Shown here: piece by piece, positions 31,433 to 37,765 of the stretch
Position numbering within the stretch: the first letter of the stretch is position 1
Layout: every line of letters begins with the position of its first letter
Source of the DNA: Helicobacter pullorum NCTC 12824
GTDB taxonomy: Bacteria; Campylobacterota; Campylobacteria; Campylobacterales; Helicobacteraceae
DNA length: 45,471 bases
Reading direction: 5' to 3'
Assembly: GCF_017979475.1 (NCBI RefSeq)
Contig: NZ_JAERIT010000011.1
Span: 1 to 45,471, forward strand
The notes under the pieces: generated by a model
The model's database searches: none
Seen by the model: the letters and a program-made list of their open reading frames with translations, nothing else
What the model was told of the DNA's origin: nothing
Made by a program: the position numbers and the translations under genes

Positions 31433-32136
31433 TGCACTTTTCTTTTGTGAGCCTATTTCCGCATTTATTAGAATCGTATTTTAGCGATTCGATTTTGTGC
31501 CGTGCTATAAAAAATCAAAAAATTTCTGTTGGATACATAAATCCAAGAGATTTTAGCAAAAATCGATTTTTGAAAGTTGATGATTATCAAGTTGGTGGAG
31601 GTGCTGGGCTTGTGCTAGAGCCTTTTGCATTGAGTGATACATTAGAATCTATCAAAAATCAAGATTCCAAAGCACATATTATCTTTTTAACACCTTGTGG
31701 GAAAAATTTTAACCACAAAGATTCTAGGCGTTTGGCAAAAAAAGAGCATATTGTTTTTGTTTGTGGGCGTTATGAAGGATTTGATGAAAGATTGATTGAG
31801 CTTTATGCAAATGAAGTTTTTAGCATAGGGGATTTTATTTTGACAGGTGGTGAGCTTGCGGCACTTTGTTTGTGTGATAGCATTGCAAGGCAAATTAATG
31901 GGGTGCTTGGCAATAGCGAATCTCTAAAGGGCGAGAGTTATGAAGATTTTTTGCTTGAAGCGCCAAATTTTGTCAAACCTCATATTTTTAAAAATTTAAG
32001 TATTCCTTCAGAGTATTCAAAGGGAAATCATGCTAAAATTTGCGACTTAAAATTAAAAGCATCAGAGGCAAAAACTAGATTCCATAGATTAGACCTCTAT
32101 TGGCAATACAAACAAAGGTTAAAAAATGAGAAATAA
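31432..32136 (+). CDS. trmD: tRNA (guanine-N1-)-methyltransferase
   Basis: TrmD methylates G37 next to the anticodon and prevents frameshifting. The 234-residue protein has the SPOUT knot seen in [37 protein letters not shown] and the AdoMet-binding loop [16 protein letters not shown], with [16 protein letters not shown] near the N terminus. It overlaps rplS by 11 bases. Confidence 0.97.
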
Positions 32137-32482
32137 ATACATTCAACATTTTGAAGATGCACAAATGGCAGGAAAAGAGATTCCACAATTTAAAGCTGGA
32201 GATACTTTGAGGGTTGGGATTCGTATTTCAGAAGGCGACAAAACAAGAATCCAAAATTTCGAAGGGATTTGTATTTCTTTACGCGGGGTTGGCACAGGCA
32301 AGACTTTTACGATTAGAAAAATCGGTGCTAATGGCGTTGGAGTTGAGAGAATTTTCCCTATTTATTCAGAAAGTATTGATAGTATCAAGGTGCTTAAAAT
32401 CGGTCGTGTTAGACGTGCAAAACTCTATTATCTACGCACTAGAAGCGGAAAATCTGCAAGGATTAAAGAGATTAGAAAATAA
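32126..32482 (+). CDS. rplS: 50S ribosomal protein L19
   Basis: L19 sits at the 30S-50S interface. The 118-residue protein shows [40 protein letters not shown] and the C-terminal [20 protein letters not shown] family signature. It is the last gene of the ffh-rplS cluster; the accessory island begins 36 bases further on, in convergent orientation. I see no convincing intrinsic terminator in that short gap. Confidence 0.97.
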
Positions 32483-32517
32483 TCTCTTAGCTTCTGCTTT
32501 CATTTTTACTTCAAGCT

Positions 32518-33318
32518 TCACATCAATACAAAAACTTCCTTATAAAGTTTCTCTATTTCTTTTTTATTATCTTGTGTTTCTATATTTTCCATTACTCCAA
32601 GATAATGCTCTAATTCACCATTTTGAATAAGATAATTATACAATGCACAACTTCTTGCTTGGCAGTTGATTGAATTTTTGCCAAACTCAATATCAGTAAA
32701 AACATTGTATTTTGATAAATCTATTTTGTGCTCTCTCAATGCTTGGATATAAATGTAATCATAAAACAAGGTTTTAGGCTCATTGGGATATTGCTTGCCT
32801 TTGTAATCAAAATAATCCAACTGGGATTGTGGATAAAGCATCAAATAAAGCTTATTTAAATCCCTTTTTGATTTTGTATCCCAAAAACCACTCGCTTTTA
32901 GCTGTTGATAAATCTTTTTTGCCTTTTCTTTATCGGTTTTATTGGTTGCATCTAGCCTTATTTCATCATTGAATATTCTTTCTTTGATTTCATCAAATCC
33001 TTCACAATAGCCATCACTATTGACAAAAACTTTTGCAGTTTGAAAAATATCCTCGATACAAACGCCTTGCAAAGTGAGATTAAAGGCACTAAGTTGAAAC
33101 CCTAGCTCTTTATTGGGAGATTTTGTAGAAACTTCCAAAATATTGGAATTAGGGTATTGTTTGAGAATTTCATCGTGTAGAGAACAAATACACTTCTGTT
33201 TTTGCCCTATTGCAAATCCACCAAAATAATCAAACTCAAATTCCTTTTCCAAAACTCCATTAGCTTGATTAATAAAACAAAGCTTTTTGCTTCTTGGTTG
33301 CTTTTTTTGTCTGCTCAT
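32518..33318 (-). CDS. DarT1-type NADAR antitoxin
   Basis: NADAR proteins paired with DarT1 toxins remove ADP-ribose from guanine bases in DNA and so neutralise the toxin. The 266-residue protein shows the blocks I recognise for this family: FGGFAIGQKQKCICSLH at about residues 32-48, ILEVSTKSPNKELGFQLSAF (60-79), EDIFQTAKVF (89-98), EPKTLFYDYIYIQAL (180-194) and FTDIEFGKNSINCQARS (207-223). A charged stretch of about 70 residues lies between the third and fourth block. Its ATG follows AAGGAGATAATGCA. It lies 66 bases downstream of darT in the same direction. The NADAR call is from memory of family motifs, not a search. Confidence 0.78.
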   Translation of the reverse strand: MSRQKKQPRSKKLCFINQANGVLEKEFEFDYFGGFAIGQKQKCICSLHDEILKQYPNSNILEVSTKSPNKELGFQLSAFNLTLQGVCIEDIFQTAKVFVNSDGYCEGFDEIKERIFNDEIRLDATNKTDKEKAKKIYQQLKASGFWDTKSKRDLNKLYLMLYPQSQLDYFDYKGKQYPNEPKTLFYDYIYIQALREHKIDLSKYNVFTDIEFGKNSINCQARSCALYNYLIQNGELEHYLGVMENIETQDNKKEIEKLYKEVFVLM

Positions 33319-33348
33319 TGCATTATCTCCTTTTATTTTCTAACGCTA

Positions 33349-33381
33349 CTAGAAAGGAATATCATCCAAATCATCATTCAT
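33349..33381 (-). pseudogene. SSB C-terminal-tip-like micro-ORF, probable ssb remnant
   Basis: Directly after the darT stop and in the same frame, the minus strand reads CCT, ATG and then codons for NDDLDDIPF before a stop. An acidic run ending DDIPF-stop is the hallmark of the C-terminal tip of single-stranded-DNA-binding protein, which recruits repair and replication proteins. No OB-fold coding sequence precedes it. It may be the last codons of an ssb gene left at a recombination joint, a micro-ORF read by reinitiation, or a tail once fused to DarT. The exact match over a short stretch is the only evidence. Confidence 0.5.
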
Positions 33382-33384
33382 AGG

Positions 33385-34203
33385 CTAAGAATACTCAATG
33401 CGTATGATATATTTTGGATCTATTGATCCTTGATACAATATCTCTGCTTGCTCATAGGTTGGCTCATTGGCTGCTTTATTATATCTTTTTACCTGTTGCT
33501 TTCCTCTTGTTGTCTCAAAATACACCACATCATCAAACATTCGCTCTAAATCCGATAATGTCCTACCTTTTGGACATTTAGTAGAAGCAGCGTTGGTTAC
33601 ACAATAAAGCCTATCATTGCTTTCTTTATAAAGGATACTAGCATCGATATAAATAAACGCTCCCCTTTGGATACTTCCCTTCTTCACAAAGCTTTGATAA
33701 ACATAATTATTGGGATTTGTAATAGAGAGGGAAATATAATCCAATCTCTTATCCCATCTCGCATTATCATTAAATCTAAATTCCATTCCTCTTCTTTGCA
33801 AAAAGGCTCTACTAAGCAAACCATTCCTTTTGATAGAAGAGATATTAGCCGCATCAGTAAAATGCACGAGGTATTTTATCCCTCTTTTCTCCAAAAACCT
33901 CTTAATTTCTGGATAATAGTTAGTTTGTGGCACCCCATCAAAAGCTTTCTCTTTTAAATTGTCCTTTTTATGATAGGCTTCTTGCTCTTCATTTTTACGA
34001 TAGTTTTTATTTCTCTTATCCGCTTCAATATCTTTTAAAATCTCTTGCCATCTTTTCTTTTCTTCGGCAGTAAAGGGCTTATAGCTTTTATCTAAACTCT
34101 TCTCAATTTCATCTTGAAGATTGCGTCTGTGCTGCTTAACGCCACCAAGATTAAAAATATACAACGCAACAATAACAACAACCACTAAGATTAAAAATTC
34201 CAT
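33385..34203 (-). CDS. darT: DarT-family DNA ADP-ribosyltransferase toxin with N-terminal membrane anchor
   Basis: DarT enzymes transfer ADP-ribose from NAD+ to bases in single-stranded DNA and block replication; they act as TA toxins and anti-phage factors. In this 272-residue protein the DarT domain starts near residue 97: YLVHFTDAANISSIKRNGLL (111-130) is the NAD-binding His-Phe-Thr region, LDYISLSITNPNNYVY (154-169) follows, and TYEQAEILYQG (249-259) holds the likely catalytic Glu254. Residues 2-19 are a transmembrane helix followed by KQHRRN, predicting a cytoplasmic enzyme tied to the inner membrane, and residues 38-62 form a charged helix. Residues 1-62 are homologous to the two small proteins upstream. 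The NADAR gene follows, which supports a DarT1 (guanine-modifying) assignment. Confidence 0.82.
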   Translation of the reverse strand: MEFLILVVVVIVALYIFNLGGVKQHRRNLQDEIEKSLDKSYKPFTAEEKKRWQEILKDIEADKRNKNYRKNEEQEAYHKKDNLKEKAFDGVPQTNYYPEIKRFLEKRGIKYLVHFTDAANISSIKRNGLLSRAFLQRRGMEFRFNDNARWDKRLDYISLSITNPNNYVYQSFVKKGSIQRGAFIYIDASILYKESNDRLYCVTNAASTKCPKGRTLSDLERMFDDVVYFETTRGKQQVKRYNKAANEPTYEQAEILYQGSIDPKYIIRIEYS

Positions 34204-34449
34204 AACAACTCCTTTGATTAAAGTTTTGTATAAAATTCCCTAAATATTTTTTACGATTTTTTATCTATCGTCAATCTCTTTCAAAATCTCTTGCCACCTT
34301 TTCTTTTCAGCATCGGTTTTGGGTTTATAGCTCTTCATAATAGACCTTTCAATGTCATTGCGAAGATTGCGTCGAAACTTCTTAATAATACTAAGATTTA
34401 AAACATATAATGCAACAATAACACCAACTACCAAGATTAAAAATTCCAT
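34204..34449 (-). repeat. 246-bp tandem repeat, copy nearest darT
   Basis: This copy and 34450-34695 are direct repeats of exactly 246 bp with, by eye, about fifteen scattered differences. Each holds a 57-base spacer, identical over nearly its whole length, and one 62-codon gene with its AAAGGAG site. The 5' end of darT is a third, more diverged copy of the coding part. Confidence 0.9.
34261..34449 (-). CDS. Small membrane protein homologous to the DarT leader, copy 2
   Basis: A 62-residue protein: transmembrane helix at residues 2-19 (EFLILVVGVIVALYVLNL), basic KKFRRN just after it (N-out, C-in topology), and a charged C-terminal helix AEKKRWQEILKEIDDR. AAAGGAG lies six bases before the ATG, identical to the sites in front of darT and of copy 1. 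It differs from copy 1 at only a few positions (for example YKPKTDAEKK against YKPFTDEEKK). DarT residues 1-62 align with it over the whole length. It ends at a stop where DarT continues. Role unknown; it could form membrane oligomers with DarT or be a by-product of duplication. Confidence 0.78.
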   Translation of the reverse strand: MEFLILVVGVIVALYVLNLSIIKKFRRNLRNDIERSIMKSYKPKTDAEKKRWQEILKEIDDR

Positions 34450-34695
34450 AACAACTCCTTTGATTAAAGTTTTGTATAAAATTCCCTAAATATTTTTTAC
34501 GATTTTTTATCTATCGTCAATCTCTTTCAAAATCTCTTGCCATCTTTTCTTTTCTTCGTCGGTAAAGGGCTTATAGTTTTTCATGATAGACCTTTCAATG
34601 TCATTGCTAAGATTGCGTCGAAACTTCTTAATAATACTAAGATTTAAAACATATAATGCGACAATAACACCAACCACCAAGATTAAAAATTCCAT
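34450..34695 (-). repeat. 246-bp tandem repeat, copy nearest the YwqK-like gene
   Basis: This is the second copy of the unit described at 34204-34449. Its upstream edge is sharp: beyond the shared ribosome binding site at about 34708 the sequence no longer matches the other copy. No inverted ends, target duplications or transposase are visible, so unequal recombination or slippage is more likely than transposition. Confidence 0.9.
34507..34695 (-). CDS. Small membrane protein homologous to the DarT leader, copy 1
   Basis: A 62-residue single-helix membrane protein with the same plan as copy 2: helix at residues 2-19, KKFRRNLSNDIERSI, then YKPFTDEEKKRWQEILKEID. The YKPFT-x-EEKKRWQEILK core is the same as in DarT, so this copy is closer to the toxin leader than copy 2 is. 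I start it at 34695, where AAAGGAG has correct spacing; the frame could extend 24 codons further but that part includes the ribosome binding site. It lies 80 bases downstream of the YwqK-like gene and is probably in the same transcript. Confidence 0.78.
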   Translation of the reverse strand: MEFLILVVGVIVALYVLNLSIIKKFRRNLSNDIERSIMKNYKPFTDEEKKRWQEILKEIDDR

Positions 34696-34775
34696 AACAA
34701 CTCCTTTGATTTTTTTAATATTATTTTGCGATTCCATTTGCCTTGCTTGGATATTTTGGTCAATCACTACTCAAA

Positions 34776-35477
34776 TCAGTAATCTTTACTCCAAACTTCC
34801 AAATCATATTTATAACCTGTCTCGCTTTTTAACTTTCCATTTTCATCATAAACTTTTAAATTTTCATTTTCATCATAAACTTTTACAATTCCATTTATTT
34901 TGTCATCTACAAAAGTAGCTTCCTGTTGTATTTTTCCATTTTCATCATAAAGTTTTTGAATTCCATTTGCTTTATCATCTACAAAAGTGGCTTCCTGATC
35001 TATTTTTCCATTTTTATAATAAATTTTTGCAATTCCATTTTTTTTACCATCTTTGTAGGGGATTTCCCTTTGTAGTTTTCCATTTTCATAATAAATTTTT
35101 GCAATTCCATTTTTTTTACCATCTACAAAAGAAGTTTCCTCTTTTAATTTTCCATTTTCATAATAAAGTTTTGCAATTCCATTTGCTTTGTCATCTTTAT
35201 AAGGTGTTTCCAGTAGTAATCCTCCACTTTCATAATAAATTTTTGCAATTCCATTTGCTTTGTCATCTTTATAAGGTTTTTCCAATAGTAATTTTCCACT
35301 TTCATAATAAGCCTTTGCAATTCCATTGATTTTTCCATCTTTATAGGGGGTTTCAGTTTTTAATCTCCCCTTTGGATAATATTCTTTTTTAATTGTCACT
35401 TTTTTATCCGCATTATTGCTACCAATAGCCCATACTATAACCCCTACAAAAAGTGCTAACGCCAAAATAATTTCCAT
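34776..35477 (-). CDS. Membrane-anchored YwqK/MORN-type repeat protein
   Basis: A 233-residue protein with an N-terminal helix (residues 3-19, IILALALFVGVIVWAIG) followed by seven 24-residue repeats (about 31-198) of the form K-x-Y-Y-E-x-G-K-L-x-x-E-x-x-(Y/F)-x-D-x-K-x-N-G-I-A and an eighth, partial one. This is the YwqK-family antitoxin repeat, a MORN variant; in Bacillus YwqK neutralises the YwqJ toxin. The last repeat contains a nine-residue duplication (KVYDENENL/KVYDENGKL) that looks like replication slippage. ATG at 35477 is preferred because AAGGAG is five bases upstream. It is the first gene of the island. Whether it affects DarT is unknown. Confidence 0.8.
   Translation of the reverse strand: MEIILALALFVGVIVWAIGSNNADKKVTIKKEYYPKGRLKTETPYKDGKINGIAKAYYESGKLLLEKPYKDDKANGIAKIYYESGGLLLETPYKDDKANGIAKLYYENGKLKEETSFVDGKKNGIAKIYYENGKLQREIPYKDGKKNGIAKIYYKNGKIDQEATFVDDKANGIQKLYDENGKIQQEATFVDDKINGIVKVYDENENLKVYDENGKLKSETGYKYDLEVWSKDY
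34884..35387 (-). repeat. Seven 72-bp coding repeats
   Basis: The recurring block around GCAATTCCATTT (plus strand) returns every 72 bases, for example at 35172 and 35244, and encodes the 24-residue protein repeats. Identity is highest between the second and third copies, so the number of copies may vary between strains. Confidence 0.85.
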
Positions 35478-35525
35478 CAAATCTCCTTCATTGGTTTTGT
35501 TTCAAACAAACAGCATGAAATCAAG

Positions 35526-35550
35526 TTTATAATTCTGCCCCCCCCCCCCC
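35526..35550 (-). promoter_or_regulatory. Island promoter with a 13-base G tract
   Basis: On the minus strand 13 consecutive G (35550-35538) are followed by CAGAAT and TATAAA (35531-35526), a likely -10 box about 50 bases before the first island gene. The homopolymer sits where the spacer and -35 region would be. Changes in tract length would alter spacing and therefore expression, the mechanism known for phase-variable promoters. Confidence 0.6.
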
Positions 35551-35632
35551 ATTAAGATTTGCTTAAATCACCCCCAAGATAATTTTCAAAACTTTCATCA
35601 AAAATCTTTTGGATATTTTTACAATGCTAAGG

Positions 35633-35638
35633 TATAAT
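35633..35638 (+). promoter_or_regulatory. -10 box for ppk
   Basis: TATAAT lies 28 bases before the ppk ATG at 35666. A start site near 35645 excludes the longer in-frame reading that would begin at 35609. Confidence 0.6.
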
Positions 35639-35665
35639 TATAAAAACTTCCAAATAAGGACAAAA

Positions 35666-37765
35666 ATGACAAATCCTTTGAATCAACCTTCCAACTTCAT
35701 TAACCGCGAACTTTCTTGGTTGCGATTCAACACTAGAGTTTTAAGCGAAGCCCAAAACAAAGAAAATCCACTTCTAGAGCGTCTAAAATTCATCGCCATT
35801 TATGGGACAAACCTCGATGAATTTTATATGGTGCGTGTTGCTGGATTGAAGCGACTATATGCCGCTAGAATCACAGAAAGCGGGGCAGATAGGCTAACTC
35901 CAAAAGAGCAGTTAGATGAGATTCGGACTTATTTGAAAAATGAAAAAAAGCTTTTGGAATCTTGCTATTTTGAAATCATTAGTGAGCTAAAAAAACTCGG
36001 GCTTTGTATCAAAAATTATGAGGAAGTTGAAGAATCCCAAAAAAAAGAATTGCAAACTTATTTTATGAATCACCTCTATCCCATCGTAGTGCCTATTGCT
36101 GTAGATGCCACTCACCCATTCCCGCACCTCAATAATCTTAGCTATGTTTTGGCATTAAAACTTCAAAGCCTTGATAATCCAAATGAAATCAAATTTGGTA
36201 TGACAAGAATCTCAAGAATGCTTCCGGGATTTATCAAGCTTGGGGATATTTATGTTTTGACAGATAGCATTGTAGCAGAATTTACAAGTGAATTATTTCC
36301 GGGTTTTCGCGTGCTAAGCTGGACTGCTTTTAGGGTGACAAGAAATGCAGATATTGAAATAGAAGAGGAAGAAGGCGATGACTTCTTAGCTTTGATGACA
36401 GAGGGCTTAAAATCTCGTAGAAAGGGAGAGATTATCCGCTTAGAAATCGGCAAAACTTCAGATAATGAACTCAAAAAATTTATTACAAATTATATCCGCG
36501 TTTCTCCTGAAGATATTTATGAATGCGAAGTGCCGATGAATTCAAGCATTCTATGGGAAATTGTGGGGAACAAAAATTTCGCCCAACTTACATTTCCAAA
36601 CTACACGCCAAAGATTCTACCGCCCTTAGATTCTAATGTAAATATTTTTTCTATTTTAGATACACAAGATATTCTTTCATTCCAACCTTATGAGAGTTTT
36701 GACCCCATTGTCAGCTTTATCCAAAATGCCGCCAAAAATCCCGATGTATTTTCTATTCGCATGACACTTTATCGTGTAGGCAAAAATTCACCCATTGTAA
36801 AAGCACTCATTGAAGCAGCCGAAAATGGCAAGCAAGTAACTGCCCTAGTAGAGCTAAAAGCAAGATTTGATGAAGAAAACAATCTACATTGGGCAAAAGC
36901 CCTAGAATCAGCTGGCGCACATGTAATCTATGGAGTCCCCGGGCTAAAAGTCCATGCCAAAATCGCACTTGTAATCAAAAAAGAAGACAAAGAATTGCGT
37001 GAATATGTGCATTTAAGCACGGGCAATTATAATCCAAGCACCGCCAAAATCTACACAGACATTAGCTATATGACTTCCAAAAAAGAATTTACCCAAGATG
37101 CAATCAAGTTTTTTCACAACCTCTCTGGATTCTCACACAAATCCAAGCTCAACACGCTTCTTGCAGCACCCTTGCAAATCAAACCAAAGATTTTAGAATT
37201 AATCGCTAATGAGGCTAAAATGGGAAGTGAGGGAAGAATTATCCTAAAAGCAAATTCTATCGTGGATACCGATGTTATTTTGGCACTTTATGAGGCTTCT
37301 AATGCTGGAGTTAAGATTGATTTAATCGTGCGTGGAATTTGTTGTTTGAAACCAGGCATCAAGGGAGTGAGTGAAAATATCCGCGTCGTTTCTATTGTGG
37401 GGAAATATTTAGAACACGCCCGTATTTATTATTTCAAAAATGCAACTCCACAAATCTACTTTGCAAGTGCAGATTTAATGCCTAGAAATTTGGAACGCAG
37501 AGTGGAATTAATGACACCGGTATTTGAAAAAAATCTCGCAGATAAACTTTTTGGCATAATTCGCCTCCAAAGTGAAGACAATTCTCAAGCACACGAACTT
37601 CAAAGCAATGGAGAATATAAAAAATTAAGCCCTATTGATGGCAAAAAAATCAATAGCCAAAAAATCTTAGAGGACTACACTAACGCAACTTACACTTCAT
37701 TAAAACGAGAAGAAGAGGAAGTAAAAGCCAAAAAACTCGCACGAAGAATGTTTAGGGAGAACTGA
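35666..37765 (+). CDS. ppk: Polyphosphate kinase 1
   Basis: Ppk reversibly polymerises the gamma phosphate of ATP into polyphosphate. The 699-residue protein starts at an ATG with AAGGA five bases upstream and begins SNFINRELSWLRFNTRVL, the usual N-terminal motif. The tunnel and head domains are followed by two PLD-like catalytic halves: TLYRVGKNSPIVKALIEAA, KVHAKIALV (candidate autophosphorylated His), HLSTGNYNPSTAKIYTD and YFASADLMPRNLERRVEL. Length and motifs are complete. It is joined to proA by a one-base overlap (TGATG). Confidence 0.96.
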   Translation: MTNPLNQPSNFINRELSWLRFNTRVLSEAQNKENPLLERLKFIAIYGTNLDEFYMVRVAGLKRLYAARITESGADRLTPKEQLDEIRTYLKNEKKLLESCYFEIISELKKLGLCIKNYEEVEESQKKELQTYFMNHLYPIVVPIAVDATHPFPHLNNLSYVLALKLQSLDNPNEIKFGMTRISRMLPGFIKLGDIYVLTDSIVAEFTSELFPGFRVLSWTAFRVTRNADIEIEEEEGDDFLALMTEGLKSRRKGEIIRLEIGKTSDNELKKFITNYIRVSPEDIYECEVPMNSSILWEIVGNKNFAQLTFPNYTPKILPPLDSNVNIFSILDTQDILSFQPYESFDPIVSFIQNAAKNPDVFSIRMTLYRVGKNSPIVKALIEAAENGKQVTALVELKARFDEENNLHWAKALESAGAHVIYGVPGLKVHAKIALVIKKEDKELREYVHLSTGNYNPSTAKIYTDISYMTSKKEFTQDAIKFFHNLSGFSHKSKLNTLLAAPLQIKPKILELIANEAKMGSEGRIILKANSIVDTDVILALYEASNAGVKIDLIVRGICCLKPGIKGVSENIRVVSIVGKYLEHARIYYFKNATPQIYFASADLMPRNLERRVELMTPVFEKNLADKLFGIIRLQSEDNSQAHELQSNGEYKKLSPIDGKKINSQKILEDYTNATYTSLKREEEEVKAKKLARRMFREN

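What the first reader, a model, noticed from the sequence alone, without database searches (positions are those of the whole stretch)
34204..34695. DarT's membrane leader exists as two stand-alone 62-residue proteins in exact 246-bp tandem repeats
The starts at 34203, 34449 and 34695 are spaced exactly 246 bases apart. Each has the same AAAGGAG site and encodes a helix plus a YKPxTxxEKKRWQEILK segment. Two copies stop at residue 62 and the third continues into the toxin domain. Intact frames and ribosome binding sites despite drift suggest selection. The small proteins could co-assemble with DarT through the shared helix and act as a membrane scaffold, titrator or sensor. I know of no such component in described DarTG systems.
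Basis: partly seen in the sequence, partly recalled or inferred. Interest (0 to 1): 0.82.

Follow-up and report, generated by a model that had tools for sequence, protein, structure and literature searches.

The report
Membrane-anchored DNA-modifying toxin, duplicated anchors
A bacterial DNA-modifying toxin carries a membrane anchor, and two extra copies of that anchor without the toxin sit directly upstream of it; they look like a local duplication, and whether the extra copies do anything is not settled.

Summary
On the minus strand, ORFs starting at 34695 and 34449 (62 aa each) and the DarT gene starting at 34203 (272 aa) lie in exact 246-bp register, with the same AAAGGAG site and 68-94% leader identity. 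The toxin is DarT1: Pfam DarT, followed by a NADAR-DarT1 antitoxin gene. It is therefore a DarTG1 system.

The leader is a strongly hydrophobic N-terminal segment plus a short helix. Genome, plasmid, phage and viral searches gave no credible relative. The closest DarT1-NADAR pair lacks it. Stand-alone copies thus look local to this lineage. Copies A and B differ mostly by synonymous changes (P 0.003; 0.04 without a stretch possibly exchanged with the DarT leader): selection on the small proteins is suggested, not shown.

A wider point: of 58 DarT ORFs in NADAR loci, 10 carry hydrophobic N-terminal segments. With the window and two further loci, these 13 fall into ten groups without detectable similarity. 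Membrane anchoring of DarT1 seems recurrent. None of the 12 other anchored loci, as fetched, has leader-only copies. Verdict: a real, lineage-specific variant of a known system.

The parts
34507..34695 (-). Leader-only gene A (62 aa): N-terminal hydrophobic helix, basic flank, YKPFTDEEKKRWQEILK segment
   Evidence: hydropathy; AlphaFold2 of A on an alignment of the three leaders gives helices 2-40 and 46-61, mean pLDDT 78
34261..34449 (-). Leader-only gene B (62 aa), 94% identical to A as protein
33385..34203 (-). DarT1 toxin gene (272 aa): residues 1-60 leader, about 61-98 linker, about 100-270 DarT domain
   Evidence: PF14487 E 8.9e-15, residues 114-269; E. coli C7 DarT1 structure 8baq matches residues 100-268, E 3e-12
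32518..33318 (-). NADAR antitoxin (DarG1), 266 aa
   Evidence: PF22397 NADAR-DarT1 E 4.1e-49; Geobacter lovleyi NADAR structure 8bat E 2e-24
34450..34506 (-). A-B junction: non-coding tail of A plus ribosome binding site of B
   Evidence: identical to the B-DarT junction
34204..34260 (-). B-DarT junction: non-coding tail of B plus ribosome binding site of DarT
   Evidence: possible hairpin over the site and start, z -1.89
34776..35480 (-). Upstream same-strand gene of MORN_2 repeats, hydrophobic N-terminus by eye; membership in the system is not shown
   Evidence: PF07661 E 3.1e-46; sequence

Best explanation
This is a DarTG1 (DarT1-NADAR) toxin-antitoxin operon whose toxin is tethered to the inner membrane by an N-terminal helix. 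SHOWN: the gene order, the domains, the hydrophobic leader and the two leader-only copies in tandem. INFERRED: one transcript; basic residues after the helix (KKFRR in A and B, KQHRR in DarT) place the C-terminal side in the cytoplasm, so the catalytic domain sits on the inner face of the membrane, where NAD+ and DNA are. It would modify guanines in single-stranded DNA there, and NADAR would reverse this. The leader-only genes arose in this lineage by tandem duplication of the 5' end of the toxin gene or of an adjacent leader gene, and have probably exchanged sequence with each other and with the toxin's leader since. They are probably translated and inserted next to DarT. The most likely effect, if any, is that toxin-less anchors compete or mix with DarT at the same membrane sites and so dilute it. 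I give about 0.4 to any selected function of the small proteins.
For: DarT and NADAR domains. Closest pair met in the searches, G434: DarT 50% over 171 aa with no such leader, NADAR 61% over 257 aa (best of the DarT loci compared), so the leader is an addition to a DarT1 core. The leader has no more than weak, unrelated matches in 120 other genomes of the family. NADAR, DarT, A, B and the MORN gene gave no tblastn match (E 0.01) in the flanks taken at rplS (18 of 18 other genomes of the genus) and ppk (17 of 18). A/B differences: 7.8 synonymous against 6.2 non-synonymous of 14, omega 0.16; 0.3% of 3000 neutral simulations had so few non-synonymous changes. Outside codons 42-51: 4 synonymous and 2 non-synonymous codons, P 0.04. 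Exchange: A matches DarT's leader at 10 of the 14 A/B differences, B at 3, clustered; a 93-base identical run covers the end of the ORF and the junction (P 0.016).
Against: Exchange with the DarT leader, itself under selection, can mimic purifying selection on A and B. Divergence may also predate truncation or come from other strains. A against DarT is not clearly constrained: omega 0.47, 11% of neutral simulations have as few non-synonymous changes, and codons 21-40 differ almost as much at non-synonymous as at synonymous sites (pN 0.39, pS 0.47). No expression data exist. Twelve other anchored DarT1 loci show no leader-only genes.
Confidence: 0.55

Rival explanations
1. Recombination by-product: leader-only ORFs are truncated 5' copies of the toxin gene with no selected role, kept open by youth and by exchange with the DarT leader.
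For: Found in one genome only; 93-base identical run including the junction; no such copies in 12 other anchored loci; the tail after the small ORF's stop weakly resembles DarT codons beyond the leader (21 of 1000 shuffles score as high).
Against: Excess of synonymous A/B differences; two open copies, while neutral simulations at the A/B divergence acquire a stop in 52% of 3000 runs.
Confidence: 0.4
2. Dedicated component: leader-only proteins form mixed membrane assemblies with DarT through the shared helix and set toxin activity or placement.
For: Shared helix and shared C-terminal YKPxTxxEKKRWQEILK segment, with both ends more conserved than the middle; same ribosome binding site; A/B omega 0.16.
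Against: No credible relatives elsewhere; other anchored DarT1 loci lack it; no interaction data.
Confidence: 0.25
3. The leader was a stand-alone small membrane gene first, already duplicated here, and an incoming DarT-NADAR cassette fused to the last copy.
For: Closest DarT1 has a different N-terminus; DarT1 enzymes carry ten dissimilar anchor groups, so anchors are acquired repeatedly; the cassette's genes were not found in the flanks taken at rplS or ppk in other species of the genus.
Against: No stand-alone leader gene in any related genome searched; weak resemblance of the A/B tail to DarT coding sequence.
Confidence: 0.25
4. The duplication matters as RNA: it gave DarT a new translation start inside a weak hairpin, and the small ORFs are incidental.
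For: The identical junction before B and before DarT folds over the ribosome binding site (z -1.89, 10 of 200 shuffles as good), while the start of A does not stand out (z 1.02).
Against: Weak stem with several G-U pairs; no Rfam match; the coding pattern of A/B changes is not explained.
Confidence: 0.1

Closest known systems
DarTG1 (DarT1-NADAR), E. coli C7 and Geobacter lovleyi
   Same: DarT1-type ART domain with a NADAR antitoxin gene (PMC11543638, passages seen)
   Different: E. coli C7 DarT1 (8baq chain, 208 aa) matches from its residue 4, i.e. without anchor or linker; no anchor or leader-only gene is mentioned in the passages seen
   Same: Hydrophobic N-terminal segment, linker, DarT domain, NADAR gene in the same locus
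   Different: Anchor sequences not detectably similar to the window's at E 0.01; no leader-only copies in the fetched loci
DarTG2 (DarT2-DarG macrodomain)
   Same: DarT-type toxin with adjacent antitoxin
   Different: Antitoxin here is NADAR; no macrodomain match

Membership tests
DarTG1 | DarT ART domain | tested here: met
   PF14487 E 8.9e-15, 55.4 bits against a cut-off of 22.5
DarTG1 | NADAR antitoxin of the DarT1-associated type in the same operon | tested here: met
   PF22397 E 4.1e-49; same strand, 66 bp downstream; single transcript not tested
DarTG1 | Catalytic glutamate in the QAE motif and the NAD-binding HFT..N..I motif | tested here: met
   H114, F115, T116, N120, I124, Q252, A253, E254 invariant in an alignment of six DarT proteins; their roles are from recall
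DarTG1 | Guanine-specific ADP-ribosylation of ssDNA, reversed by NADAR | not testable with these tools
   needs biochemistry; described for E. coli C7 and G. lovleyi in PMC11543638 (passages seen)
DarTG2 | DarG antitoxin with macrodomain | tested here: not met
   no macrodomain match in 32518-33318 at E up to 1
SHOCT-type short helical domain (considered for the YKPFTDEEKKRW segment) | match to PF09851 | tested here: not met
   not among the six families listed for A, B or the DarT leader at E up to 10; the program's filters drop most weak matches

The most novel reading that the evidence does not exclude
DarT1 toxins have been tethered to the inner membrane repeatedly, with ten dissimilar anchors, to act on single-stranded DNA as it enters the cell (phage, conjugation or natural transformation). 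In this lineage the tether has become a separate subunit: two toxin-less anchor proteins assemble with DarT at the entry site and set how much toxin sits there.
Probability: 0.12. Interest if true: 0.8.

Novelty: new variant of a known kind. Interest (0 to 1): 0.48.

Why it matters
How DarT toxins are triggered is open (a passage of PMC9967889, calls the mechanism that unleashes DarT elusive). Recurrent membrane anchoring of the DarT1 branch suggests a testable factor: location. The leader-only genes would be a natural tool to test whether anchors self-associate. If they are only by-products, they still show how a toxin's leader can duplicate and exchange.

Tried and rejected
A wider family for the leader. 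Family search: 3 genomes besides its own, E 0.001-0.006; all three (L005, L006, L007) are the same kind of longer protein, by eye a ketol-acid reductoisomerase. Order search: 4 genomes besides its own, E 2e-5 to 1e-3; the four (L022, L025; L023, L024, after I had first read these two on the wrong strand) are unrelated longer proteins by eye. Genome, viral, plasmid and phage searches gave no confirmed relative; phages also gave no match to DarT.

Of 150 confirmed genome loci only the best 80 were kept by the tool. 35 of these 80 showed no DarT by my profile and are outside the DarT counts; one search lists upstream frames for most of them, and I recognised no DarT there by eye. The 58 DarT ORFs hold 56 distinct sequences.

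SHOCT idea: not supported. DarT structure from its single sequence: mean pLDDT 43.8, too poor for a fold search. RNA family: none. Weak similarity of the leader to colicin DNases (E 0.24-0.97 range) taken as chance. I at first noted G082's DarT as broken (note) because the profile match reported stops; the ORF list shows an intact 177-aa frame, and the match runs past its stop.

Full report
OBSERVATION. On the minus strand three ORFs start at 34695, 34449 and 34203, exactly 246 bases apart. The first two stop after 62 residues; the third is a 272-residue protein. The repeat is found by the repeat finder and by Tandem Repeats Finder (34025-34711, period 246, 2.8 copies, score 1047). Leaders are 94% (A/B) and 70% (A/DarT) identical as proteins. 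From 16 nt upstream of each ATG to nt 17 of the ORF the three copies are identical, so the shared ribosome binding site is part of an unchanged block and not separate evidence of selection.

IDENTITY. DarT matches PF14487 (E 8.9e-15, residues 114-269) and the next gene matches PF22397, the DarT1-associated NADAR antitoxin (E 4.1e-49). E. coli C7 DarT1 (8baq) matches residues 100-268 and Geobacter lovleyi NADAR (8bat) matches the antitoxin. The motif residues H114-F115-T116, N120 and Q252-A253-E254 are invariant in six DarT proteins. By the naming in PMC11543638 (passages seen) this is DarTG1.

THE LEADER. The N-terminal stretch is strongly hydrophobic (best 18-residue means 2.78, 2.78, 2.88; none of 2000 shuffles reached the observed value in any of the three). 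AlphaFold2 of A on an alignment of the three leaders gives helices 2-40 and 46-61 at mean pLDDT 78; full-length DarT from one sequence was poor (43.8) and I did not use it. The basic stretch after the helix suggests that the C-terminal side is cytoplasmic (positive-inside rule, recalled). No topology predictor was available.

WHERE ELSE. The 62-residue protein gives weak matches in 3 of 120 other genomes of the family and in 4 of 397 others of the order; all seven, read, lie in unrelated longer proteins by eye. None of 137 pattern hits in genome contigs was confirmed, nor any in viral contigs; plasmids and phages gave no match. Records very near the window's genome may be hidden from the collection searches, so copy number between strains is untested. 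Full-length DarT has no other match in the family at E 1e-5. PF14487 is present in 37 of 398 genomes of the order and PF22397 in 2 of 120 of the family, the window's own and G082; G082 has a short DarT (177 aa, no leader) before its NADAR gene. The closest pair I met is in G434: DarT 50% identical over 171 residues and NADAR 61% over 257. Its DarT N-terminus is a different, acidic stretch, and another gene lies between its antitoxin and toxin genes. In the same genus, NADAR, DarT, A, B and the MORN gene gave no match in the flanks taken beside rplS (18 of 18 other genomes, 4.0-5.8 kb each) or ppk (17 of 18, 1.3-5.5 kb each). The cassette thus lies at a junction not seen in those relatives.

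RECURRENT ANCHORS. A scan with NADAR proteins returned the best 80 of 150 confirmed genome loci and 10 viral loci. A DarT ORF was found in 45 of the 80 and 10 of the 10; 58 ORFs in all, 56 distinct. Eighteen of the 58 have at least 45 residues before the domain, and 10 of the 58 have a hydrophobic segment there (18-residue mean 1.7 or more). Eight proteins were given to Pfam: seven are DarT (six of the ten, plus L107 from a Vibrio plasmid); one of these, L135, also carries a DUF4328 domain. The eighth, L160, is a SHOCT membrane protein described under other observations. With the window, L107 and L059 (genome G158), 13 anchored proteins fall into ten groups: the four Enterobacter/Raoultella leaders resemble one another, and no other pair matched at E 0.01. 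The criterion is hydropathy, not a topology predictor, and 48 of the 58 ORFs show no such segment. None of the 12 others has a second copy of its leader in the fetched locus, whereas the same search finds A and B in the window. Print: 'transmembrane' occurs 0 times in PMC11543638, PMC11125620 and PMC9967889 (word counts and passages). The listings (15 of 23 papers shown; 5 of 5; 4 of 4) showed no title or abstract start on an anchored DarT. The LeRoux 2022 paper is not held. So I found no description, in a library that lacks many papers.

HISTORY AND SELECTION. A and B differ at 14 of 246 positions, all between nt 21 and 153; the last 93 bases of the unit are identical (P 0.016 for such a run). 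At the 14 sites A agrees with DarT's leader at 10, B at 3, and the eight from nt 126 to 153 all agree with A. This pattern suggests exchange between copies, or faster change in B. Over 60 codons A/B show 7.8 synonymous and 6.2 non-synonymous differences (omega 0.16); 0.3% of 3000 neutral simulations had as few non-synonymous ones. Dropping codons 42-51 leaves 4 against 2 codons (P 0.04). A/DarT and B/DarT give omega 0.47 and 0.31, with neutral-simulation fractions of 0.11 and 0.013; DarT's leader is itself part of a gene probably under selection. The tail after the small ORFs weakly resembles DarT coding sequence (21 of 1000 shuffles; 20 of 2328 stretches elsewhere in the window score as high), which leans toward truncated toxin copies without settling it.

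MECHANISM. My reading is a tethered DarT1 with NADAR as antidote, plus two toxin-less anchors made by local duplication. Competition or mixing of anchors at the membrane is the simplest effect they could have. I put about 0.4 on a selected role and about the same on a by-product. The novel reading, a tether that places DarT1 where single-stranded DNA enters, is not excluded and would apply to all ten anchor groups.

Noticed in passing
window 35538-35550: Run of 13 G on the minus strand, 61 bases upstream of the ATG (35477) of the MORN_2 gene and next to an AATTATAAAC stretch; looks like a phase-variable promoter tract for the MORN-A-B-DarT-NADAR gene row.
   Followed up: partly
window 34776-35480: MORN_2 protein with about six 72-bp repeats and, by eye, a hydrophobic N-terminus; similar DNA on Cetobacterium plasmids is annotated 'toxin-antitoxin system YwqK family antitoxin'. 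A second related stretch lies on contig C11 of the same genome.
   Followed up: partly
window 34190-34263 and 34436-34509: Identical junctions before B and DarT can fold over the ribosome binding site and start (z -1.89), unlike the start of A (z 1.02).
   Followed up: partly
L160 2156-2752: In Vibrio fluminensis a membrane protein with a SHOCT domain (PF09851), not a DarT, precedes the NADAR gene.
   Followed up: no
L135 1073-2965: Sulfurovum DarT1 fused to a DUF4328 domain.
   Followed up: no
L177 and L190: DarT1 proteins of Poribacteria with about 390-610 residues before the DarT domain, not hydrophobic by my threshold; possibly repeat-type extensions.
   Followed up: no
window 32126-37765: rplS and ppk lie about 3 kb apart here, with the cassette between; in three relatives (G067, G068, G069) they lie roughly 19-23 kb apart with ppk inverted relative to rplS.
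   Followed up: partly
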